DNA of 64,000 nt from Betaproteobacteria bacterium HGW-Betaproteobacteria-3 (GTDB lineage Bacteria; Pseudomonadota; Gammaproteobacteria; Burkholderiales; Burkholderiaceae_C), in NCBI GenBank assembly GCA_002842205.1, contig PHCI01000004.1, positions 62,001 to 126,000 on the forward strand, in the 5' to 3' direction. A program made the translations under genes and the position numbers. The stretch's first letter is position 1. Every line of letters starts with the position of its first letter. The notes beneath the pieces are model-generated. The model was not told the origin of the DNA. It worked only from the letters and a program-made list of their open reading frames with translations, and did not search any database. Positions 14,345 to 59,650 of the stretch are shown one piece after another.

Positions 14345-14355
14345 TCCGGTGCGTT

Positions 14356-14407
14356 GATTGCTACTTTTTGAGTAGCAAACAATCGCCATTGGACGGGGGC
14401 TAAAGGC
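14356..14407 (+). repeat. Dispersed hairpin repeat, copy 3 (best formed)
   Basis: TTGCTACTTTTTGAGTAGCAA forms a stem-loop (TTGCTAC paired with GTAGCAA) followed by ACAATCGCCATTGGACGGGG and GCTAAAGGC. It is the clearest copy of the family in the window and lies directly before an intrinsic terminator. Confidence 0.85.
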
Positions 14408-14411
14408 AAAA

Positions 14412-14435
14412 AAGCCGCTCAAAGAGCGGCTTTTT
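14412..14435. terminator. Bidirectional intrinsic terminator
   Basis: AAGCCGCTC, an AAA loop and GAGCGGCTT form a perfect 9-bp stem, followed by a T-run and preceded by an A-run. It therefore works for both the rightward DUF1841 gene and the leftward cytochrome c4 gene, whose 3' ends face each other here. Confidence 0.9.
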
Positions 14436-30984: not shown

Positions 30985-32154
30985 ATGTTCCTTGAAGTCA
31001 CGCAACTCCGGGTCCAGTACGCGGGGCAACCCCAACCGGCGGTAGACCACGTGTCGCTCGGCCTGCGTGCGGGCGACATCGGCGTGCTGATCGGTCCGTC
31101 GGGCTGCGGCAAGACCACGCTGCTGCGGGCCGTGGCCGGGCTGGAACGCGTCAACGGCGGCGAAATCAAGTTGTCAGGCCAGGTGGTCAGCAGTGCGGGC
31201 ACGCACCTGTCGGCCGAGCAGCGGCGCGTGGGCATGGTGTTTCAGGATTACGCGCTGTTTCCGCACCTGGACGTGGGCCGTAATGTGGGTTTTGGCATCC
31301 ACGCCCTGCCCCGCGCCGAGCGCGCCGCGCGGGTGGCCGAGGTGCTGGCGCTGGTGGGTCTGGAGGGCAGCGAAAGGCGCTATCCGCATGAACTCTCGGG
31401 CGGTCAGCAGCAACGCGTGGCGCTGGCCCGCGCGCTGGCGCCGCGGCCCCAGCTGCTGCTGCTGGACGAGCCGTTTTCCAACCTCGACGTGGACCTGCGC
31501 GAACGCCTGGCGCACGAGGTGCGCGGCATCCTCAAGGCCGCGGGCGCCACCGCCCTGTTTGTCACGCACGACCAGCTCGAAGCCTTTGCCATCGGCGACG
31601 TGATCGGTGTCATGCACGAAGGCCACCTGCACCAGTGGGACGACGCCTACACGCTCTACCACCGCCCCGCCACGCGGTTTGTGGCCGACTTCATTGGCCA
31701 CGGCGTGTTCACGCCCGCCACCCTGCACCAGAGCGGAGACCAGGTGGTGGTGCACACTGCCCTGGGCGACCTGACCGACGTGGCCGGTTGCCCGGTGCCG
31801 GGCGCGTTTGACGGCGGCCAGTGCGAAGTGCTGCTGCGCGCCGACGACATCGTGCACGACGACGACGCGCCGGTGAAGGCGCAAATCGTCCGCAAGGCGT
31901 TTCGCGGCTCGGAGTTTCTCTACACGCTGAAGCTCAAGACCGGTGAGACGGTGCTGGCCCACGTGCCCAGCCACCACGACCACAAGCTCGGCGAATGGAT
32001 CGGCATCCGCGCCGAAGTGGACCACGTGGTCACCTTTGACCGCGCCTGCCCCCTGCACACCCGCGCGCTGTGCCAGACGCCCTGCATTCACGCGGCCCAG
32101 GGCACCTGCCCAGTGCCCACCGCGGCGGCGGTGGTGCCGATCACGCTGGTTTGA
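30985..32154 (+). CDS. Iron(III) ABC transporter ATP-binding protein (FbpC-like)
   Basis: A 389-residue ABC ATPase: Walker A GPSGCGKTT (residues 37-45), Q-loop FQDYALF, signature LSGGQQQR, Walker B LLLLDEPFSNLD and H-loop VTHDQ, then a TOBE-type C-terminal domain. It matches FbpC/PotA-type ATPases and is divergent from its permease. The tail is longer than usual for FbpC (about 350) and ends in a segment with cysteines spaced C-x7-C-x3-C-x7-C. The final codons and downstream sequence are duplicated 3.2 kb away (35281 on), marking the left edge of an insertion. Confidence 0.9.
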   Translation: MFLEVTQLRVQYAGQPQPAVDHVSLGLRAGDIGVLIGPSGCGKTTLLRAVAGLERVNGGEIKLSGQVVSSAGTHLSAEQRRVGMVFQDYALFPHLDVGRNVGFGIHALPRAERAARVAEVLALVGLEGSERRYPHELSGGQQQRVALARALAPRPQLLLLDEPFSNLDVDLRERLAHEVRGILKAAGATALFVTHDQLEAFAIGDVIGVMHEGHLHQWDDAYTLYHRPATRFVADFIGHGVFTPATLHQSGDQVVVHTALGDLTDVAGCPVPGAFDGGQCEVLLRADDIVHDDDAPVKAQIVRKAFRGSEFLYTLKLKTGETVLAHVPSHHDHKLGEWIGIRAEVDHVVTFDRACPLHTRALCQTPCIHAAQGTCPVPTAAAVVPITLV

Positions 32155-32226
32155 GGGTAGCACCATGCTTTTTGAAGGTTTTTTGGCCTATATCCCCCAT
32201 CAGATATCAATACTTTGCTATTTTTT
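32115..32226 (+). repeat. Left direct repeat flanking the island (3' end of ABC ATPase gene)
   Basis: This copy begins GCCCACCGCGGCGGCGGTGG, contains the ATPase stop codon, and runs through GGGTAGCACCATGCTTTTTG into the dispersed repeat. A core of about 40 bases is identical to the right copy at 35281-35410. The sequence match is seen directly. Confidence 0.9.
32180..32226 (-). repeat. Dispersed hairpin repeat, copy 5 (in left direct repeat)
   Basis: TTGGCCTATATCCCCCATCA then ATATCAATACTTTGCTA. It is part of the left direct repeat and a variant of the family seen across the window. Confidence 0.7.
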
Positions 32227-32383
32227 TTGGAGTCAACGCATCCGGCTGGCAACGGCGTTCGGTCTTGCAAACATCCGTCACGCTGGAGAGTCATCTGGAC
32301 GCCCCCCCCGTCAGGCCCGGCTGGAATACGATCTCAGATCGTTGGCCATGGGGTGCTTTCAAAGAAATTGACTGACGCGATGA

Positions 32384-32400
32384 TATACGATTATCGTATA
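32384..32400. promoter_or_regulatory. Perfect palindrome, candidate operator of the HTH regulator
   Basis: TATACGAT-T-ATCGTATA is a perfect 8+1+8 palindrome 63 bases upstream of the regulator start. It overlaps a TATAAT-like -10 box (32397-32402), and a TTGACT lies upstream at 32368. This fits autorepression by an XRE-type dimer; binding is inferred. Confidence 0.6.
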
Positions 32401-32462: not shown

Positions 32463-32900
32463 ATGAGCAAACGAAAGACACCCGTGATGCAAAGCTTTGG
32501 TGAGCGCCTGGCACAGTTGCGCAAAACCGCTGGTTACACCCAGGTGGAGTTTGCTGCCGAGTTGGACATTTCCCAGCGCATGGTGGCGTATTACGAGGCA
32601 CCCGATGCACAGGCCCCGGCGCATTTGTTGCCGCAAATGGCCACAGCGCTGGGGGTAAGCGTGGATGTACTCTTGGGCTTGAGTGAGAAACGCAACCCCA
32701 AGCGCATTGCCACCCACCGGCTGGAGCGGCGTTTGCTGGAGATCGATAAGTTCGACCCCAAGGCCAAGCGTCAGATCACGCAACTGCTCGATTCGTTTAT
32801 CGAGGCGGAGAAGCTCAAGCAGAAAATGAAGGCGCGCACCACCCCAACCGCAAAGCCACGCGCCCAACGCAATCAACCATCCAACGCACAGGAGGCCTGA
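32463..32900 (+). CDS. XRE-family helix-turn-helix regulator
   Basis: A 145-residue protein with an N-terminal HTH_3 domain (LAQLRKTAGYTQVEFAAELD then ISQRMVAYYE, about residues 15-45), a helical middle and a basic tail. Shorter start codons are possible, but MSKRKTP at 32463 has GGAGAG eight bases upstream. It is followed two bases later by the antitoxin gene, so it may be the transcriptional regulator of the toxin-antitoxin set. It resembles phage- and island-type repressors. Confidence 0.85.
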   Translation: MSKRKTPVMQSFGERLAQLRKTAGYTQVEFAAELDISQRMVAYYEAPDAQAPAHLLPQMATALGVSVDVLLGLSEKRNPKRIATHRLERRLLEIDKFDPKAKRQITQLLDSFIEAEKLKQKMKARTTPTAKPRAQRNQPSNAQEA

Positions 32901-32902
32901 AC

Positions 32903-33142
32903 ATGACCACGCTTCAAATTGAATTGCCCGATGGCACAGCCCAGGCGGCGCGTGCTGCGGGCCTATTGACGCCGCAGGCTCTGGACCGGCTGCTGACTGA
33001 GGCCCTGCGCAAGCGCGAAGCTGCCAATTCGCTGCTGTCGATTGCCGATCGCGTGGCTGCTGCGGGCATTGCGCCCATGACCATGGAAGAGATCAATGCC
33101 GAGGTGAAGGCTGCGCGCGCTGAACGCGGGCCGTTGAACTGA
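32903..33142 (+). CDS. Type II antitoxin-like protein
   Basis: A 79-residue protein, MTTLQIELPDGTAQAARAAG followed by LLTPQALDRLLTEALRKREA, with a GIAPMTMEEINAEVKAARAER tail. The ATG follows GGAGGCCTGAAC, a strong ribosome-binding site, and the gene is immediately upstream of a PIN-domain toxin. Small proteins of this look pair with PIN toxins; it lacks a recognised DNA-binding domain. Identification is from size, pattern and context. Confidence 0.75.
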   Translation: MTTLQIELPDGTAQAARAAGLLTPQALDRLLTEALRKREAANSLLSIADRVAAAGIAPMTMEEINAEVKAARAERGPLN

Positions 33143-33147
33143 ACCTG

Positions 33148-33570
33148 GTGCGGGCAGTTATTGATACCAACGTGCTGCTGTCGGCCTTGCTGTGGGGCGG
33201 CACGCCACGTGCGCTTTTGGAACATGTGCGCAATGGCGCGGTGACGCTGATCAGCAGTCCGGCGCTGCTGGCGGAGTTGTCCCGCGTGTTGGAGCGGCCC
33301 AAGTTTGATGTGCTTTTGCTGCGCTCCAATACGTCACGGGTGCAGACGCTCGCAGAGGTGCGACAACTGGCCGAGGTAATCGATCCGCCACCGCTGGCGC
33401 AGCCGGTGTGCCGCGACCCCGATGATGATGCGGTGTTGGCATTGGCCGTGGCCGCTCAGGCGGACCTGGTGATATCGGGCGATGATGATTTGCTGTGCCT
33501 GGTCAGCTTTGAGGGGATTCCGATTTTGATGCCAGCGCAGGCACTGCACAGGGTGCTGGCGGCGTTGTAG
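33148..33570 (+). CDS. PIN-domain toxin (putative type II toxin)
   Basis: A 140-residue PIN-fold ribonuclease-type protein. Metal-binding acidic residues are seen in MRAVIDTNVLLSALLWGG (N-terminal Asp), RDPDDDAVLALAVA and ADLVISGDDDLL. It matches the putative toxin component of the PIN family. The start is a GTG six bases after the antitoxin stop; there is no ATG in a suitable position, as is common in this family. With the antitoxin it forms a likely toxin-antitoxin operon, which would cleave RNA when freed from the antitoxin. Confidence 0.88.
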   Translation: MRAVIDTNVLLSALLWGGTPRALLEHVRNGAVTLISSPALLAELSRVLERPKFDVLLLRSNTSRVQTLAEVRQLAEVIDPPPLAQPVCRDPDDDAVLALAVAAQADLVISGDDDLLCLVSFEGIPILMPAQALHRVLAAL

Positions 33571-33591: not shown

Positions 33592-33627
33592 GGTGGTGAA
33601 TTTTCCAAACACGGCACTGACCGCGCC
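33592..33627 (-). pseudogene. Remnant of a pretoxin segment (GAVSAVFGKFTT)
   Basis: On the minus strand this short stretch encodes GAVSAVFGKFTT, the same residues as in the intact pretoxin segment at about 35145-35185, with a few base changes. It then runs into unrelated sequence 22 bases past the PIN toxin stop. It is a fragment of a third copy of the toxin-delivery protein. Confidence 0.75.
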
Positions 33628-33662
33628 CCTGACGCGAAGTCCAGTTAGCGCGGCACTCATCG

Positions 33663-33869
33663 TCACCTCACCTCGTGGTGGGCCACGAAGTACACCGCCA
33701 TCGCACCAATTGCCAGTACAGCCAACAAAAGTCCGATCCAATAGGCGATAACCAACGGCAACAAATGCGCGAACGTTAGCGCGACCACAAGACCACTCAA
33801 AAGAATGAAGCCCAACATCCATCGAAATGCCTTGGCCTTGAGACCACTACCTTCATTCCTATGGCCCAT
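33663..33869 (-). CDS. Small membrane protein, candidate immunity protein (module 2)
   Basis: A 68-residue protein (MGHRNEGSGLKAKAFRW at the start) with two hydrophobic helices (about 19-40 and 43-63). The ATG at 33869 has GGGGAGAAATAGCA just upstream, a better site than an ATG six codons earlier. It overlaps the end of the module 2 toxin-like segment by 11 bases, the usual toxin-then-immunity order. Immunity function is inferred from position and from the matching arrangement of module 1. Confidence 0.6.
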   Translation of the reverse strand: MGHRNEGSGLKAKAFRWMLGFILLSGLVVALTFAHLLPLVIAYWIGLLLAVLAIGAMAVYFVAHHEVR

Positions 33870-34359
33870 TGCTATTTCTCCCCACATCTCGAACGCACAT
33901 CTGGTAGCCGCGACAACCTGTGATTCCCGCAGCCTTCCCCCAACCCACTTGAGGTCTCAAGGTAAAGGACTTGCCAGCAGAACCTTCTACCTGGTCAAAC
34001 TTAGTGGCCCACGTTCCTCCAAACCCATCGATGTTTGTCACTGCGAACCCTGTGGAGTTTTGCCAGCCTGAAGTTACCCGTCCAAGCGAGAGTCCTCCCG
34101 TAGCTCCTGCTCCAAACGCCAGTCCGGGGCCAACCGCGCTGCAAAAATCATAGTAGACACAAGCGTCAACACGGTCCAGAGGGAAGGTCAGACCCACTTC
34201 ACCCGACAACCCAAGCGAAGCAATGTGACCGGAGGCATTGAGCCCGACCTGAAGCCCGCCTCCGCCTCCTTCGAATGAGTCACCAGTGGGAGGCCCGCTC
34301 TCCTCGGGTGAGGGCCCGCATTGTCCGTGGCGGCAAGCATTAAAGAGGTACCTAACCTG
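33859..34359 (-). pseudogene. Orphan toxin C-terminal segment (module 2), lacking its N-terminal part
   Basis: An open frame with no good start, bounded upstream by a TGA. It begins QVRYLFNACRHGQCGPSPEE, so it starts at a YLFN junction like that of module 1 (YGYLFNQ). A glycine-rich C-terminal domain follows (EGGGGGLQVGLNASGHIASL, VYYDFCSAVGPGLAFGAG). This is the form of a displaced C-terminal domain of a CdiA/Rhs-type polymorphic toxin. The glycine-rich domain resembles none with a known activity that I recognise. The nearest alternative start is a TTG at 34209. Confidence 0.65.
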
Positions 34360-34590: not shown

Positions 34591-35316
34591 TCAGTTTTTA
34601 AATGGTTTGACGAGTTGGTCGTAGACCGAACCAGCTGTGGCTCCCCATCTACCTGCTACAGGCGCTGGTACACCAATTCGCGTCAACCCCTTTTCGACCG
34701 CTGCTCCAAAGGCCACTGATCCTGTCGTAAGTCCCGCGTCTTTGTACTTCTCATTGGCCAAATCCACTCCAACGGTTGCGACGTCGTACACGGTTACAGC
34801 GACACGCCCGGGCGCGGTCATCTGAACGCCAAGCTTAAGTACATCAACGCCTTGCTCGGGCGAACCACCATTTGTAACGGGCAATCCAGCACATCTACTA
34901 GCTGCCTCAGCAACACATCCCGCCCCTTGCATCACTTGTCCATTTCTCAGGGCCGCCCGCCTGTTTGCTTCTTCTGTGGACATCATTTGATTAAACAGAT
35001 ACCCATAAGCCGCAGTCTCCGCCCCGTTGGCGAACTTGCCGCCGACGATGACCGATCCTACACCCCCGGCAACAGACGTCGCAACACCACGGGCAATGAC
35101 GCCGCCGATGCCGCCACCCCCCACGCCGCTGATGGTGTTCGTGGTGAATTTGCCGAACACGGCACTGACCGCCCCCTGTCCGCATTTGCCCCCACCGGCC
35201 ACGGCGCTGATGCAGCCCGCACCGGCATGCGCCAAGTAGCGTGCTGGGGAATCCGCCAGGCCGACCTCGCCACTCAGGGCGCCCACCGCGGCGGCGGCGG
35301 CGGTGGTGCCGGTCAC
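34591..35316 (-). CDS. CdiA/polymorphic-toxin C-terminal module (module 1)
   Basis: A 241-residue open frame. The first half (SPARYLAHAGAGCISAVAGG, GAVSAVFGKFTT, then a glycine-rich run to NGAETAAYGYLFNQ) is the conserved pretoxin segment typical of the C-terminus of CdiA-like haemagglutinin proteins. After YLFNQ a different domain begins (to VKPFKN), with no activity I recognise. The GTG start lies inside the right direct repeat and has no clear ribosome-binding site, and the frame stays open further upstream, so it looks like a piece of a larger protein left without its delivery part. Confidence 0.7.
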   Translation of the reverse strand: MTGTTAAAAAVGALSGEVGLADSPARYLAHAGAGCISAVAGGGKCGQGAVSAVFGKFTTNTISGVGGGGIGGVIARGVATSVAGGVGSVIVGGKFANGAETAAYGYLFNQMMSTEEANRRAALRNGQVMQGAGCVAEAASRCAGLPVTNGGSPEQGVDVLKLGVQMTAPGRVAVTVYDVATVGVDLANEKYKDAGLTTGSVAFGAAVEKGLTRIGVPAPVAGRWGATAGSVYDQLVKPFKN

Positions 35317-35410
35317 CCTGGTTTGAGGGTAGCACCATGCTTTTTGAAGGTTTTTTGAGGATTTTTGGCCTCTAGCCCCCGTCGAATATCAATACTTTGC
35401 TACTGTTTAA
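35281..35410 (+). repeat. Right direct repeat flanking the island
   Basis: Matches 32115-32226: GCCCACCGCGGCGGCGGCGG, then a 40-base identical core beginning CTGGTTTGAGGGTAGCACCA, then a dispersed repeat copy. On the plus strand it reads as the last codons of an ABC ATPase gene (PTAAAAAVVPVTLV and stop) with no gene before it. Confidence 0.9.
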
Positions 35411-35412
35411 GA
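35364..35412 (-). repeat. Dispersed hairpin repeat, copy 6 (in right direct repeat)
   Basis: TTGGCCTCTAGCCCCCGTCG then AATATCAATACTTTGCTACTG. It lies between the right direct repeat core and the acyltransferase stop codon. Confidence 0.75.
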
Positions 35413-35438
35413 AGTAAAGTGTCAGCACACAACGGCAC

Positions 35439-36239
35439 TCACCCCCGTAGCCGGATCACCTCGTCGCGCAAGGCCTCGGCCCATGTCCGCCGGTTGCGAC
35501 CTTGCGCGTGCTGTGGTTCGCCAAACACCACCACGGCGCCAATGTCCGGTGCGCTCAGCGTGCGCCAGATCGAGCCGAGCAGGGTGTCGTCGCCGATGTA
35601 GCACGGCGCCAGCGAGAGGGCGCCGGTGCGGCGGTCGGTGAACTTCAGCGCCACCGGTTGCACGGGCGCCTGCGCCGTGATGGCGGCCTGCAGCAGGTTG
35701 GCGTGAAACGGCAGCAGGCTCACGCCGTCGCTGGTCGTGCCTTCGGGGAAGACGGCGAGGATGTCGCCCTCGCGCAGGCGTTCGGCCATGTGGTGCACCA
35801 CGCGCAGGGCGTCGCGGCGCGATTCGCGTTCGATGTACAGCGTGCCCGCGCCCGTGGCCAGGGTGCCGATCAAGGGCCAGCCTTTCACGTCGGCCTTGGA
35901 CACAAAGCGGCAGTGCCGCGCCGCGTGCATGACGACGATGTCGAGCCACGAAATGTGGTTGGCCACCAGCAGCACCGGCCCCGCCGCCGGTGGCGAACCC
36001 GCGACCGTGAGCTGGACGCCCAGGATGACCAGCATGCGGCTGGCCCAGGCCTGCACATGGGCTTCGCGGTGCAGCGGCGTGAGGCGGGGAAACACCACCA
36101 CGATCATCCACAGACCGCGGACGACGTGGGCCGTGCCGCGCGTCAGCCGGGCCACGGCGGTCAAGCCGCTCACTGGCGTACCTTCGCCCTGCGGGCTGCC
36201 GTGCGAGCTGGCTTGGGAACGGCCCGGCGCGGCGCTCAT
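35439..36239 (-). CDS. 1-acyl-sn-glycerol-3-phosphate acyltransferase (PlsC-like)
   Basis: A 266-residue membrane-associated acyltransferase. The catalytic box reads NHISWLDIVVMHAA (H-x4-D variant), and FPEGTTSDG is the glycerolipid-binding motif; one hydrophobic segment (about 30-55) anchors it. Such enzymes acylate lysophosphatidic acid in phospholipid synthesis or make ornithine lipids. Its ATG overlaps the stop of the dihydroorotase-like gene by four bases, so it is the last gene of the pyr-ruvX operon. Confidence 0.88.
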   Translation of the reverse strand: MSAAPGRSQASSHGSPQGEGTPVSGLTAVARLTRGTAHVVRGLWMIVVVFPRLTPLHREAHVQAWASRMLVILGVQLTVAGSPPAAGPVLLVANHISWLDIVVMHAARHCRFVSKADVKGWPLIGTLATGAGTLYIERESRRDALRVVHHMAERLREGDILAVFPEGTTSDGVSLLPFHANLLQAAITAQAPVQPVALKFTDRRTGALSLAPCYIGDDTLLGSIWRTLSAPDIGAVVVFGEPQHAQGRNRRTWAEALRDEVIRLRG

Positions 36240-41685: not shown

Positions 41686-41744
41686 GCCCGGGGGTCAGCA
41701 CGGGCACCGATCCTGGCACGGCAGCGCGCCGTGGAATGGCATGA

Positions 41745-41798
41745 TTTACTATAATATAAATAGCAAACTATCGCCATTTCACGGGGACTTGAGGCCTA
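41745..41798 (+). repeat. Dispersed hairpin repeat, copy 7
   Basis: AATAGCAAACTATCGCCATT then TCACGGGGACTTGAGGCC. It lies between the convergent photolyase and chpA genes and overlaps the chpA stop by a few bases. Confidence 0.75.
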
Positions 41799-44700
41799 AA
41801 TATCTTCCAATTCGACGTGGGTGTAGCGACGCACCAGACTCAGCAGTTCGTCTTCCGGATACGGCTTGCCCAGGTAGTGGTTGACGCCCAGTTCCATGGC
41901 ATGGTCGCGGTGCTTGGTGGCAATGCGCGAGGTGATCATGATGATCGGAAGGTCTTTGAGCTTGGCGTCACCGCGGATGTTGCGGGCCAGGTCAAAACCG
42001 TCCATGCGTGGCATTTCGATGTCGGACAACACCACCGAAGGCCGCTCGTCCTGCAAGCGCTCGAGCGCCTGGAGGCCGTCGGCCGCCAGAACCACGCGGT
42101 AGCCTTCGCGCTGCAGCAGGCGCTGGGTCACGCGGCGCACGGTGATGGAGTCGTCCACCACCATCACCAGCGGCACCTGCGACGGCGCACCCGCTGCCAG
42201 CACGCCGCCATCCACCCCCGAGACCGAGACCTCGCCGAGCATGTGCGGCTGGGCGTGGTCTGCGCTCAGGCTGCGGGCCTGCGCCCCATAGACCGACGCC
42301 AGCGCCACAGGGTTGTAGATCAGCACCACCGCACCCGAGGCCAGCACCGTCATGCCCGCCAGACCCGGCAGCCGGGCCAGCTGCGGCCCGAGGTTCTTGA
42401 CGACCACTTCCTGGTTGCCCAGCACTTCGTCCACATGCAATGCCACGCGTTGGGCCGCACTGCGCAGCACCACCACCGGCAGGGTTTTGCCCTGCAGTTC
42501 GGTGCTGCGTTGGGACGCCTGCAACAGCGCCCCAGCCCAGAAGAATGGCACCTGCTCACCGCCGTAATCCAGCGTGCCGTTGTTATAGGCCTGCTCCACT
42601 TCCTTGGCAGGTGCGCGCCGCACGATCTCAACCACGTTGGACGGCACGCCAATCGACTGGGTGCCAAAACGCAGCATCACCACTTGCGTGACCGCCGTGG
42701 TCAACGGCAGCACCATGCGGAAGGTGGTGCCCTGGCCCGCCTGCGTGGAGGTTTCGATCCGTCCGCCCAGTGCGTTGACTTCGGCCCGGACCACGTCCAT
42801 GCCGATGCCCCGGCCGGCCAGTTCGGTCACGTCGGTTGCGGTTGAAAAGCCTGGCAGGAAAATCAGGTTGGCGACTTCCGCGTCGCTGAGCGCCTGGCCG
42901 GGATCGAGCAGGCCGAGCGCGGCCGCCTTGTCGCGGATCCGGGGCAGATTCAAACCCGCGCCGTCGTCGGTAAATGCAAGCGCAACGTCATTGCCTTCGT
43001 GGTGCAAGTCCACGGTGATCGTGCCCGCCGCCTCCTTGCCGGTCGCCAGGCGTTGCGATGGGTCTTCAATGCCGTGGGCCACGCAGTTGCGCAACAGGTG
43101 CTCGAACGCCGGCGTCATGCGGTCGAGCACGCCGCGGTCCATTTCAATGGAACCGCCGGTGATGTCGAGCTTGACCTGCTTGCCGGTGTCTTTGGACGCC
43201 TGGCGCACCACGCGGTAAAGGCGTTCGGAAATGCCTTCGAACTCGACCATGCGGGTGCGCAGCAGATCGCGCTGCAACTCACGCGTCTGGCGGGCCTGGG
43301 CGATGAGGTCGTCCTCGGTGGCTTCCACGGTGCGCTGGATGTTGCGCTGCACGGTGGCCACGTCGTTGACCGACTCGGCCATCATGCGGGTGAGTTCCTG
43401 CACGCGGGTAAAGCGGTCAAACTCGAGCGGATCGAAGCCCTGTTGCGAATCCTTGGCCTGGGCCAGCCGGGACTGCATCTGTGTCTCGGCCTGCAGCTCG
43501 ACGTCGCGCAACTGGCTGCGCAGGCGGTCAAGGTTGCCGGTCAGGTCGCCCAGCGAGCCGCGCAACTGGCCCAGCTCGGCTTCCAGGCGCGACCGCGTGA
43601 TCATCACCTCACCCGCTTGCGTCACCAGACGGTCCAGCAAATGCGAGCGCACCCGCACGGCTTGCTGGTGGCCCTGGCGCATCGGTGCCAGAACGGTCTG
43701 CGCAGGCAAGGCGATTTCGGTCCGCGTGGATGGCGCCACATCCCGGGCCCCCTCGGCAGGCTCTGTATGCGGGCTGGCCTCGGCCATGACGGGCGACTCA
43801 GCGGTGGGGACGGCTTGCGGCGCCATGTCAGGCGCCGGGGCGTCGCTGACGACACGCAGTCCGTCAAAGTTGCCCTGCAGAACGTCAAATCGGGTCAGCA
43901 GTGGTTCGATCTGCGCGGTGTGCAGGTCGTCGTGTCCGATCTCTTCGATTTCGGACTCCATGCGGTGGGCCAGTTCGCCCAGGCGCAAGGCGCCTGCCAG
44001 GCGCGCGCTGCCCTTGAGCGTGTGCAGCGTGCGAAGGGCTTCATTGCGCGCGCCGAGGTTACCGGGGCGGGCCGCCCACTGGCGCAAGGCACCCCCAAGC
44101 TGGGGCAACAGTTCGGCCGCTTCTTCCTCAAAGATCGGGAACAGGTCCGGATCGATCGCGTCGATCGCATCAATGTCGTCGTCCACGTCACCGCCAAGCC
44201 CCTGGCTGGCCAACGCATCCGTCGCGGTCGGTGTGACCCGCGGCGCCGAGAAGGTGCCGTAGGTCGTCGTCGCCGGGGTCGATGGTTCGTCTGTTGCCGA
44301 TGGTGAGTACGCCTGGGGCGAAACCGCATCGACTTGTCCCCCGGTGGCGACAACCTGCAAGTGCGGTGTCGTGGGCGGCGGATGGTCGTCGGTCGCAGAC
44401 TCCATCAGCCCGGCGCTCAATGCCTCGTCAGCCGCCTCGTCTGCCTGGAGGTTTCGCAATGCGTCCAGGATTTCCGGGTCTGGCGCCTTGAGAAAACCTG
44501 CCGCAAACTGATGCAGCAGCCGCCGGATATCGTCGGCAACGGCCGAAAATACGCGCGCCTGGCGCGGCGTCCCGTGGGCCTCGACCTGGGCATGTTGCAG
44601 GGCGTGCTCCAGCAAGCGCGCCATGTCCGACAAGGCCGTGAACCCGACCGTTGCCGAACTGCCCGCCAGCGAGTGCGCCAGGCCAATGGCACTGTCGGGC

Positions 44701-52684: not shown

Positions 52685-53981
52685 CCGCAACGCCGAACTG
52701 TTCGAGCGCGCCAAACGCCTCATTCCCGGCGGGGTGAACTCGCCGGTGCGGGCCTTCAAGGCCGTGGGCGGCACGCCGCGTTTTGTACAGCGCGCCCAGG
52801 GCGCCTACTTCTGGGACGCCAACGGTCAGCGCTACATCGACTACATCGGCTCGTGGGGGCCGATGATCCTGGGCCACGGCCACCCGGCGGTGCTGGAAGC
52901 GGTGCAAAAGGCGGCACTCGACGGCTTTTCGTTCGGCGCGCCGACCGAGCGCGAAGTCGAACTGGCCGAAGCCATCATCCGCCTGGTGCCCTCCGTCGAG
53001 ATGCTGCGCCTGGTCAGCTCGGGCACCGAGGCCGCCATGAGCGCGATCCGCCTGGCGCGCGGCGCCACCGGCCGCACCAAGTTCATCAAGTTTGAAGGCT
53101 GCTACCACGGCCACGCCGACGCGCTGCTGGTCAAGGCCGGCTCGGGCCTGGCGACCTTTGGCAACCCCACCAGTGCGGGCGTCCCGGCCGAGGTGGTCAA
53201 GGACACGCTGGTGCTCGAATACAACCACCTGGCCCAGCTTGAAGAAGCCTTTGCGCTGCATGGCAAGGAACTGGCCTGCCTGATGATCGAACCCATCGCC
53301 GGCAACATGAACTTTGTGCGTGCCAGCGTGCCCTTCATGAAGCGTTGCCGCGAGCTGTGCACGCAGTACGGCGCCCTGTTGGTGTTCGACGAGGTCATGA
53401 CGGGTTTTCGCGTGGCCCTGGGCAGCGCGCAAAGTGTCTACGCCAAAGCCATCCCCGGGTTCGAGCCCGACATGACGGTCATGGGCAAGGTGATCGGCGG
53501 CGGCATGCCGCTGGCCGCGTTCGGCGGCAAGCGCGCCGTGATGGAACAACTGGCGCCGCTCGGCGCGGTGTACCAGGCCGGCACGCTGTCGGGCAACCCC
53601 GTGGCCACGGCCTGCGGTCTGGCCACGTTGCGCGAGATTTCAAAGCCCGGCTTTTTCGACGCACTGTCGGGCAAGACGCGGTCGCTAGTGACCGGGCTGC
53701 AGCAGGCGGCCAATGCAGCGGGCGTCGCCTTCAGCGGTGACAGCGAAGGCGGCATGTTCGGCTTCTTTTTGCTGCCCGCCTTGCCGCAAAACTACGGCGC
53801 CGTCATGAAGACCGACGGCGCCCGCTTCAACACCCTGTTTCACGGCCTGCTGGAGCGCGGTGTCTACATCGCGCCGGCGTTGTACGAGGCCGGCTTCGTG
53901 AGCAGTGCGCACAGCGACGACGACATCGCGCACACCGTCGAGGCAGCGGCAAGCCTGTTCAAGATACTTCAAAATAAATAG
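52668..53981 (+). CDS. hemL: Glutamate-1-semialdehyde 2,1-aminomutase
   Basis: A 437-residue PLP enzyme that makes 5-aminolevulinate in the C5 haem route. Key motifs: [13 protein letters not shown] at the start, [33 protein letters not shown] and the PLP lysine in [17 protein letters not shown]. It overlaps thiD by 17 bases. Length is as in other bacteria. The C5 route is typical of betaproteobacteria. Confidence 0.96.
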
Positions 53982-54018
53982 CTAACTATCGCCATTTGGC
54001 GGGGGATGAGGCCCGAAA
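53966..54018 (+). repeat. Dispersed hairpin repeat, copy 8
   Basis: AATAGCTAACTATCGCCATT then TGGCGGGGGATGAGGCCCG. It overlaps the hemL stop codon, showing that the element has been absorbed into the 3' end of a coding gene. Confidence 0.75.
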
Positions 54019-54037
54019 TCTTATAAATTTCAGGGCC
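54010..54037. terminator. Hairpin between convergent hemL and purH
   Basis: GGCCCGAAAT, a CTTATAA loop and ATTTCAGGGCC pair with one bulge. There is no T-run, so its role as a terminator for the convergent genes is only possible. Confidence 0.4.
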
Positions 54038-57222: not shown

Positions 57223-57705
57223 ATGGAAGTCTGGATTGAACACCTGCTCACGCTGCTGGCGCTGCCCAAATTCGGCCTGTGGACAGTGTTCGTGGTGTCG
57301 TTCATTTCGGCGACGCTGCTGCCGCTGGGCTCCGAGCCCGTGGTGTTCGGCCTGGTCAAACTCAACCCCGAACTGTTCTGGCCCGCGGTGCTGGTGGCCA
57401 CGGTCGGCAACACCCTGGGCGGCGCGGTGGACTGGTGGATGGGCTACGGCACCCATCGGGTGGTGGACAAGGTCCGGCATTCCAGCACCCACGTCAAGGC
57501 CCTCGCGTGGCTGGAACGCCTGGGGCCCAAAGCCTGCCTGCTGGCCTGGCTGCCCGCCGTGGGCGACCCACTGTGCGCCGTGGCCGGCTGGCTCAAGCTG
57601 CCGTTCTGGCCTTGCCTGTTCTACATGGCGATTGGCAAGTTCCTGCGCTACGTGGTGATGACCGGCGCCCTGGTGTGGGTGTTCCCGGGGCAATTCACCC
57701 CGTGA
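57223..57705 (+). CDS. YqaA family membrane protein (SNARE-associated/DedA-like)
   Basis: A 160-residue integral membrane protein with about four hydrophobic segments and the DedA/SNARE-like motifs FVVSFISATLLPLGSEPVVF, VATVGNTLGGAVDWWMGYG and AWLPAVGDPLCAVAGWL with FLRYVVMTG at the end. The YqaA subgroup is shorter than full DedA proteins. DedA relatives help maintain lipid and envelope homeostasis; the role of YqaA is unknown. It diverges from dusB. Confidence 0.88.
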   Translation: MEVWIEHLLTLLALPKFGLWTVFVVSFISATLLPLGSEPVVFGLVKLNPELFWPAVLVATVGNTLGGAVDWWMGYGTHRVVDKVRHSSTHVKALAWLERLGPKACLLAWLPAVGDPLCAVAGWLKLPFWPCLFYMAIGKFLRYVVMTGALVWVFPGQFTP

Positions 57706-57717
57706 GCGGCTGAGCCT

Positions 57718-57772
57718 CTGTTTGCTATATTATGAGTAGCGAACTATTGCAATTTGACGGGGGCTGAAGGCA
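57718..57772 (+). repeat. Dispersed hairpin repeat, copy 9
   Basis: GTTTGCTATATTATGAGTAG then CGAACTATTGCAATTTGACG then GGGGCTGAAGGC; its arms GTTTGCTA/TAGCGAAC form a stem. It is followed by a T-rich stretch and the antitoxin stop. Confidence 0.8.
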
Positions 57773-57790
57773 TTTTTTATTGAAAATCAG

Positions 57791-58440: not shown

Positions 58441-58488
58441 TCCTCAAGTATACGCAAATTGCGGATACCCATGAGCGACCGGGCCCCT

Positions 58489-58548
58489 GTTTACTACACT
58501 AAAAGTAGCAAACTATCGCCATTGGACGGGGGCTAGAGGCATTTTTTA
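58489..58548 (+). repeat. Dispersed hairpin repeat, copy 10
   Basis: GTTTACTACACTAAAAGTAG then CAAACTATCGCCATTGGACG then GGGGCTAGAGGC, followed by the same GCATTTTTTATTGAAAATCA tail seen after copy 9. The two copies 0.77 kb apart flank the toxin-antitoxin pair. Confidence 0.85.
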
Positions 58549-58555
58549 TTGAAAA

Positions 58556-59650
<1,095 letters not shown>

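What the first reader, a model, noticed from the sequence alone, without database searches (positions are those of the whole stretch)
34591..35316. Toxin module 1 reads out of the duplicated repeat with no start of its own
The GTG start sits inside the right direct repeat, no ribosome-binding site is visible, and the frame stays open upstream into the repeat (KAWCYPQTR before VTGTTAAAA). So the pretoxin frame and the antisense of an ATPase 3' end are joined. Either the repeat was the recombination junction or the pretoxin sequence really extends over it.
Basis: seen in the sequence. Interest (0 to 1): 0.5.

Follow-up and report, generated by a model that had tools for sequence, protein, structure and literature searches.

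The report
Stranded tail of an antibacterial toxin
The open frame is the cut-off tail of a known type of bacterial competition toxin, left with its probable immunity genes and joined to a stray copy of the end of a neighbouring transporter gene, so it probably cannot be made as it stands; this is close to a known kind of genomic leftover.

Summary
The frame 34591-35316(-) is the C-terminal tail (pretoxin plus toxin) of an Rhs-type polymorphic toxin. Its called GTG and first 12 codons lie inside a 77-bp copy (35281-35357) of the neighbouring ABC-ATPase gene's 3' end (original 32115-32185). Homologous pretoxins run on upstream in frame for at least 155 residues. In the window, clear DNA similarity begins at about 35232. 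Its residues further upstream fit a profile of 31 homologues no better than shuffled ones (100 of 100 shuffles as good), while 29 of 31 homologues fit clearly. So the repeat edge is the junction. In 36 of 36 relatives' loci examined the ABC ATPase and acyltransferase converge, in 20 at most 250 bp apart. The 3.2 kb between the repeats is therefore extra DNA: two toxin/immunity-like modules, a further pretoxin scrap and a PIN toxin-antitoxin-like operon. Profile searches found no Rhs core, RHS repeat or T6SS sheath gene in the draft genome. It is an orphan Rhs-CT/immunity array, a known kind, here without a detectable parent gene. How the joint arose is inferred and undecided.

The parts
30985..32154 (+). 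ABC transporter ATP-binding protein; its 3' end is the left copy of the repeat
   Evidence: Pfam ABC_tran 2.7e-35, TOBE_2 6.1e-08; best matches in relatives 80-84% identical
32115..32185 (.). left copy of the duplicated segment: last codons and stop of the ABC ATPase plus 31 nt
32186..32236 (.). dispersed repeat element next to the left copy
32463..32900 (+). XRE-type regulator, first gene of a three-gene toxin-antitoxin-like operon
   Evidence: HTH_3 3e-08, HTH_31 8.1e-09 (scanned from 32475, an internal start I chose)
32903..33142 (+). 79-aa small protein, probable antitoxin of the PIN protein (by position only)
   Evidence: no family match above cut-off; 5 nt before the PIN gene; anti-SD -10.3
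33148..33570 (+). PIN-domain protein, TIGR00305 type (putative toxin)
   Evidence: PIN_3 1.5e-21; TIGR00305 5.7e-22, above its cut-off
33593..33628 (-). scrap of a further pretoxin (GAVSAVFGKFTT), broken off beside the PIN gene
   Evidence: 92% identical over 36 nt to 35141-35176
33663..33869 (-). putative immunity protein 2, small membrane-like protein (68 aa from ATG 33869)
   Evidence: anti-SD -8.5 at ATG 33869; one strongly hydrophobic segment, KD 2.62
33859..34359 (-). module 2: toxin 2 frame, opening at the YLFN motif 13 nt after the immunity-1 stop
   Evidence: reads QVRYLFNACRHG...; one relative, 32% identical, E 1.4e-6, fused to pretoxin-YLFN in an Rhs protein, L152
34364..34579 (-). 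putative immunity protein 1, small membrane-like protein (71 aa)
   Evidence: 11 nt after the toxin 1 stop; GAGG upstream, duplex -6.1, within background; one strongly hydrophobic segment, KD 2.68
34591..34980 (-). module 1: toxin 1 domain after the YLFN motif
   Evidence: 13 of 19 tblastn alignments to other loci end by aa 118; 4 run to aa 122-130, one to 174 (L009), one weak one to 216; no credible relative of this part
34981..35256 (-). module 1: pretoxin segment shared with Rhs proteins
   Evidence: up to 78% identity; blastn similarity starts at 35232-35234
35281..35357 (.). right copy of the duplicated ABC-ATPase 3' end; holds the called GTG 35314-35316
35358..35418 (.). dispersed repeat element next to the right copy
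35439..36239 (-). acyltransferase, usual convergent neighbour of the ABC ATPase
   Evidence: Acyltransferase 5e-28; synteny in relatives

Best explanation
Module 1 is an orphan Rhs C-terminal toxin fragment: the pretoxin plus toxin tail of an Rhs gene whose body (Rhs core and everything upstream) is gone. It is followed by its probable immunity gene and by a second toxin/immunity-like module that starts at the YLFN boundary motif. The cut end of the pretoxin is fused to a copy of the 3' end of the adjacent ABC ATPase gene, followed by a dispersed repeat element that leads into the acyltransferase. The frame reads back into that copy only because the antisense of the ATPase end is open. Most likely the toxins are silent (no start, no export part, no Rhs parent found), and the small membrane-like proteins are the only parts that can still act, as passive protection against relatives with the intact toxins. 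Shown: the truncation, its position at the repeat edge, the modular order, the usual convergent neighbourhood in relatives. Inferred: silence of the toxins, immunity function, and how the joint formed. My weak preference is loss of the Rhs body with a short templated copy of the ATPase end that then switched between two dispersed-element copies.
For: (1) Profile of 31 pretoxin homologues, each left out in turn: 29 of 31 keep signal in the stretch 45 to 8 residues before the conserved histidine (at most 5 of 100 shuffles as good; 25 beat all 100); in the window 100 of 100 shuffles are as good or better, and 96, 99 and 90 of 100 for three other choices of stretch (first version). (2) At strict settings blastn similarity begins at 35232-35234 in L002, L003, L011-L014, L016, L017; in L004, L005, L006, L009, L010 further in. 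(3) All 36 matches listed (near-duplicates included) have at least 155 residues of open frame upstream; the window has 53 residues between the last stop and the conserved histidine. The Rhs core is above cut-off in the two relatives tested. (4) ABC ATPase and acyltransferase converge in 36 of 36 loci; 20 of 36 have at most 250 bp between; the four best ABC matches outside the own genome have -4, -12, 3 and 2 bp. (5) Module 2 opens at YLFN 13 nt after the immunity-1 stop; its toxin has a relative directly after pretoxin-YLFN in an Rhs protein, followed by a small hydrophobic protein. (6) A second pretoxin scrap, 92% over 36 nt. (7) No Rhs core, RHS repeat or VipA match in the genome. (8) Repeat identity is 64 of 66 up to the dispersed element and 49 of 61 beyond (Fisher p 0.0036, boundary chosen after looking).
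Against: With relaxed scoring the same blastn run draws weak alignments of L002, L003, L011 and L012 back to about 35290-35297, across the repeat edge, at 66-70% overall identity; the profile alignment is also drawn back to the alanine run. Eight codons (35257-35280) between repeat edge and first clear homology are unassigned. For the joint: the right element is about as close to other genomic copies (73, 73, 72, 72) as to the left one (74), but the left element is closer to the right one (74) than to any of 20 others compared (best 66), so a single older duplication of the whole ~125 bp is not excluded. The in-frame 6-bp difference would also fit two alleles of the ATPase end, that is incoming DNA. 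The negative Rhs and T6SS results come from a 38-contig draft; the two Rhs control searches rang in B. subtilis and M. acetivorans but not in E. coli. Immunity function and toxicity are untested.
Confidence: 0.8

Rival explanations
1. The 3.2 kb is a small mobile piece (circle or island) that integrated by recombination at the ATPase 3' end, so the two repeats are the two ends of the integration, as with islands that rebuild the 3' end of their target gene.
For: Direct repeats at both ends with one copy completing the target gene; content typical of islands; the copies differ like two alleles. In one relative, L103, an unrelated insert at the same place has a 40-bp repeat (90% identical) after the ABC stop and again before the acyltransferase. 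The left element's best match among those compared is the right one.
Against: No integrase or transposase among the seven insert proteins scanned (smaller frames not scanned); insert DNA not matched in the plasmid or phage collections at E 1e-5; no second copy of their own ATPase coding end in 16 relatives with long gaps; the pretoxin is cut at the repeat, which an integrating unit need not do.
Confidence: 0.35
2. The pretoxin really extends over the repeat, and the ATPase end was rebuilt from toxin sequence.
For: The frame is open and Ala/Gly-rich like pretoxins; the sub-threshold Pfam DUF637 match is drawn from aa 6 (E 0.013); relaxed blastn crosses the edge weakly.
Against: Upstream residues fit homologues no better than shuffles; the right copy runs on into a dispersed element and the acyltransferase, the usual context of the ATPase end in relatives.
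Confidence: 0.03
3. The fusion made an expressed toxin: start and transcription come from the acyltransferase side or the ATPase end, giving a cytoplasmic toxin-antitoxin pair, as the title of PMC7043789 says of RHS elements in Salmonella (title and start of abstract seen in the listing).
For: Frame intact for 241 codons; toxin 1 and the next gene are 11 nt apart; a weak GTG start exists.
Against: No minus-strand promoter-like site; the GTG context is within background.
Confidence: 0.08

Closest known systems
Orphan cdiA-CT/cdiI and rhs-CT/rhsI modules (PMC3150448, passages seen; PMC3967940, passages seen)
   Same: Toxin fragments without translation start, keeping varying lengths of upstream sequence, each followed by a small immunity gene, often opening at a boundary motif
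   Different: No full-length parent gene found here; the boundary motif is YLFN, not VENN or DPxGL; the cut end is joined to a duplicated host-gene 3' end
   Same: Pretoxin up to 78% identical (L011), YLFN-like boundary
   Different: L012 and L152 have the Rhs core above cut-off and a long upstream body; what follows YLFN differs
Arrays of orphan immunity genes in T6SS clusters (PMC5361080, abstract and start of introduction seen)
   Same: Kept immunity genes are proposed to protect against kin
   Different: Toxin parts are also kept here, and no T6SS sheath gene was found

Membership tests
Orphan Rhs-CT/RhsI module | toxin fragment homologous to the C-terminal part of full Rhs proteins | tested here: met
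   Rhs core in the two relatives tested
Orphan Rhs-CT/RhsI module | lacks the N-terminal body and a clear translation start | tested here: met
Orphan Rhs-CT/RhsI module | small downstream gene encoding a cognate immunity protein | tested here: inconclusive
   gene present 11 nt downstream with a hydrophobic segment; neutralisation cannot be tested here
Orphan Rhs-CT/RhsI module | lies downstream of a full-length rhs gene (the usual setting in the passages) | tested here: not met
   no Rhs core or repeat match in the genome, a draft; for this reason I file it as a variant and not as a plain member
Orphan Rhs-CT/RhsI module | toxin domain inhibits growth | not testable with these tools
   needs expression in a laboratory strain
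DUF637 (PF04830) pretoxin | score above the curated cut-off | tested here: not met
   15.7 bits against 26.6; also below it in the Rhs relative L152, 17.8
Integrative island with att repeats | carries its own recombinase | tested here: not met
   none among the seven insert proteins scanned

The most novel reading that the evidence does not exclude
A genome without detectable Rhs or T6SS keeps a stranded pair of Rhs toxin/immunity modules because the immunity genes still protect it against Rhs-armed neighbours, and the reservoir was uncoupled from its weapon by template switching between dispersed repeats that copied the end of a neighbouring gene.
Probability: 0.2. Interest if true: 0.45.

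Novelty: new variant of a known kind. Interest (0 to 1): 0.25.

Why it matters
It turns an odd start-less ORF into a located break point: where an Rhs toxin gene was severed and what it was joined to, and it shows that the ORF's called start should not be annotated. If the immunity genes work, it is a case of immunity kept after the weapon was lost.

Tried and rejected
Structure prediction of the toxin 1 domain alone (137 residues, one sequence) gave mean pLDDT 42 and was not used. Weak toxin 1 matches in G682 (E 3.6e-4) and G1119 (E 1.9e-4) were set aside: the plus-strand frames printed for those loci show no pretoxin or Rhs that I could see. No match for the ORF or pretoxin in plasmids, for the ORF in phages or solved structures, for toxin 1 or pretoxin in viral contigs, for toxin 2 in plasmids. 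Some of these tools warn that records very near the window's genome may be left out. That repeats of the ATPase coding end recur at this place was dropped: none in 16 long gaps; the matches in L102 and L103 lie after the stop codon, the L102 one being 75% identical and inside the gap. That the two dispersed elements are unrelated to each other could not be shown. One search was in the wrong frame and was replaced. In one search the XRE gene was scored at a wrong start and that value is not used. Rows dropped before the profile test: of 36 matches the second match in L125, the weak L008, and the near-duplicates L014, L017, L145; 31 remained. In its first version 11 of 31 had no anchor and 18 of the other 20 beat all 60 shuffles; one search includes all 31. 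A note of mine gives 9 nt between the immunity-1 stop and YLFN; recounted, it is 13.

Full report
Setting. The window is bases 62001-126000 of contig C22 of a 3.77-Mb, 38-contig genome. Named loci with the nearest pretoxins are a Comamonadaceae MAG and a Ramlibacter MAG. The finding concerns the minus-strand frame 34591-35316.

The observation. The frame is there, begins with a GTG at 35316, and is open for 24 more codons upstream until a stop. The GTG and the first 12 codons lie in the right copy of a direct repeat, 35281-35357, whose left copy is 32115-32185. The left copy is the 3' end of an ABC ATPase gene (30985-32154) plus 31 nt. The ribosome-binding context of the GTG is within background (-5.2 against mean -3.3, sd 2.6).

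What the frame encodes. Matches were found in 8 of 100 relatives (whole ORF) and 19 of 399 genomes of the family (pretoxin only), the own genome included in both, and in 7 loci of the named genome collection. The shared stretch is RYLAHAGAGC...GGKFANGAETAAYGYLFN. In one search, 13 of 19 alignments to other loci end by aa 118, close after YLFN; four run to aa 122-130, one to 174 (L009) and one weak one (E 0.007) to 216. This is the pattern of a polymorphic toxin: constant pretoxin, variable toxin. The relatives are Rhs proteins where tested: TIGR03696 (Rhs core) scores 65.8 and 64.7 bits (cut-off 32.5) in L152 and L012, and a simple core motif lies upstream in 19 of 31 (the other 12 were not examined further).

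Where the similarity ends. At strict settings blastn starts to match at 35232-35234 in eight relatives, about 50 nt inside the repeat edge; at relaxed settings four alignments are drawn back weakly to 35290-35297. To judge such weak extensions I made a profile from 31 homologues, each left out in turn. The stretch 45 to 8 residues before the conserved histidine carries clear signal in 29 of 31 (at most 5 of 100 shuffles as good). In the window 100 of 100 shuffles are as good or better, and 96, 99 and 90 of 100 for three other stretches tried. The relatives' frames run at least 155 residues further upstream (36 matches, near-duplicates included). So the pretoxin is cut, and the cut is at the repeat edge to within about 25-50 nt. 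Eight codons between are unassigned.

The neighbourhood. Of 150 family genomes, 99 had the ABC match and 124 the acyltransferase, at the thresholds I set. From these I picked by hand 37 genomes with both genes on one contig, best ABC matches first, and fetched the interval. In 36 both genes were found in one stretch; G046, fetched in two pieces because the genes lie some 23 kb apart, is not counted. In 36 of 36 they converge; in 20 they are 250 bp or less apart (two of these with overlapping frame ends as I called them); in 16 more than 1 kb lies between. The four best ABC matches outside the own genome have the genes abutting. None of the 36 holds a pretoxin piece at E 1e-3. The 3.2 kb of the window is therefore extra in this lineage, and the place tolerates other insertions.

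The insert. From left to right: an XRE regulator, a 79-aa protein and a PIN protein on the plus strand, then on the minus strand a pretoxin scrap (92% over 36 nt to module 1), small protein 2, toxin 2, small protein 1, module 1. Module 2 opens at YLFN 13 nt after the stop of small protein 1. Toxin 2 has one relative in 397 other genomes, in an Rhs protein of G497 (32% identical, E 1.4e-6), where it directly follows pretoxin and YLFN and is followed by a small hydrophobic protein. Toxin 1 has no credible relative. Both small proteins have one strongly hydrophobic segment, so a membrane target of the toxins is a guess. Small protein 2 has a good ribosome-binding site at ATG 33869 (-8.5); small protein 1 a fair one (-6.1, within background by energy, but GAGG nine bases before ATG). 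No minus-strand promoter-like site was found, so their expression is open.

No parent. The genome gave no match to TIGR03696, PF05593 or the T6SS sheath PF05591. The Rhs models do detect this Rhs group. In the two Rhs searches the control rang in B. subtilis and M. acetivorans and not in E. coli, which is among the controls and which I recall to carry rhs genes in K-12. So the reach of these searches is not fully shown, and the assembly is a draft.

The joint. The repeat is 64 of 66 identical up to a dispersed element and 49 of 61 beyond (Fisher p 0.0036, with the boundary chosen after looking). The element beside the right copy is about as close to four other genomic copies (73, 73, 72, 72) as to the one beside the left copy (74); but the left one is closer to the right one (74) than to any of the 20 others compared (best 66). 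So it is likely, not shown, that the true duplicate is the 71/77-bp ATPase end and that the elements are separate family members. At least 40 matches of the element were scored genome-wide. One account is repair: the broken Rhs end was extended on the ATPase 3' end and then switched to another element copy next to the acyltransferase. Incoming DNA with its own allele of the ATPase end explains the 6-bp in-frame difference equally well. The evidence does not decide. On checking my calls I noticed the result for the left element that goes against the template-switch account, and therefore lowered the main confidence from 0.82 to 0.80 and the novel case from 0.25 to 0.20, and raised the integration rival from 0.30 to 0.35.

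Comparison with what is known. PMC3150448 (2011, passages seen) describes orphan cdiA-CT/cdiI modules that generally lack translation initiation signals, keep varying amounts of upstream sequence and usually encode the boundary motif; it reports that the orphan immunity protein is produced in E. coli EC93. PMC3967940 (2014, passages seen) describes orphan rhs fragments downstream of a main rhs gene that are expressed after recombination with it. PMC3482391 (2012, passages seen) lists DUF637 among pretoxin domains and describes standalone toxin cassettes. The present case fits this class in the features tested except the usual linkage to a full rhs gene, so I call it a variant. I made three literature searches, none aimed at orphan arrays without a parent gene or at joints with duplicated host-gene ends, and make no claim that these are unreported.

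Verdict. The thing itself is close to ordinary for its class, with two modestly unusual features: no detectable parent, and a cut end joined to a copy of a neighbouring gene's end.

Noticed in passing
window 14346-14413, 32169-32236, 35351-35418, 41734-41801, 53965-54019, 57699-57789, 58468-58558: A dispersed intergenic repeat element (about 50-90 bp, with TTTGCTA and CCCCCGTC parts on one strand or the other) with at least 40 scored matches in the genome.
   Followed up: partly
L103 (G185), between ABC ATPase and acyltransferase: A different insert (a 703-aa frame) at the same place has a 40-bp repeat, 90% identical, after the ABC stop and again before the acyltransferase; the place may be a favoured landing site bracketed by small repeats.
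   Followed up: partly
window 32463-33570: Three-gene cluster: XRE regulator, 79-aa protein without family match above cut-off, PIN protein (TIGR00305). A perfect dyad ATACGAT-T-ATCGTAT lies upstream at 32385-32399 (seen by eye), a possible operator.
   Followed up: no
window 34107-34121 and 34701-34715: Short 15-nt near repeat (93%) between the two toxin frames; may be chance.
   Followed up: no
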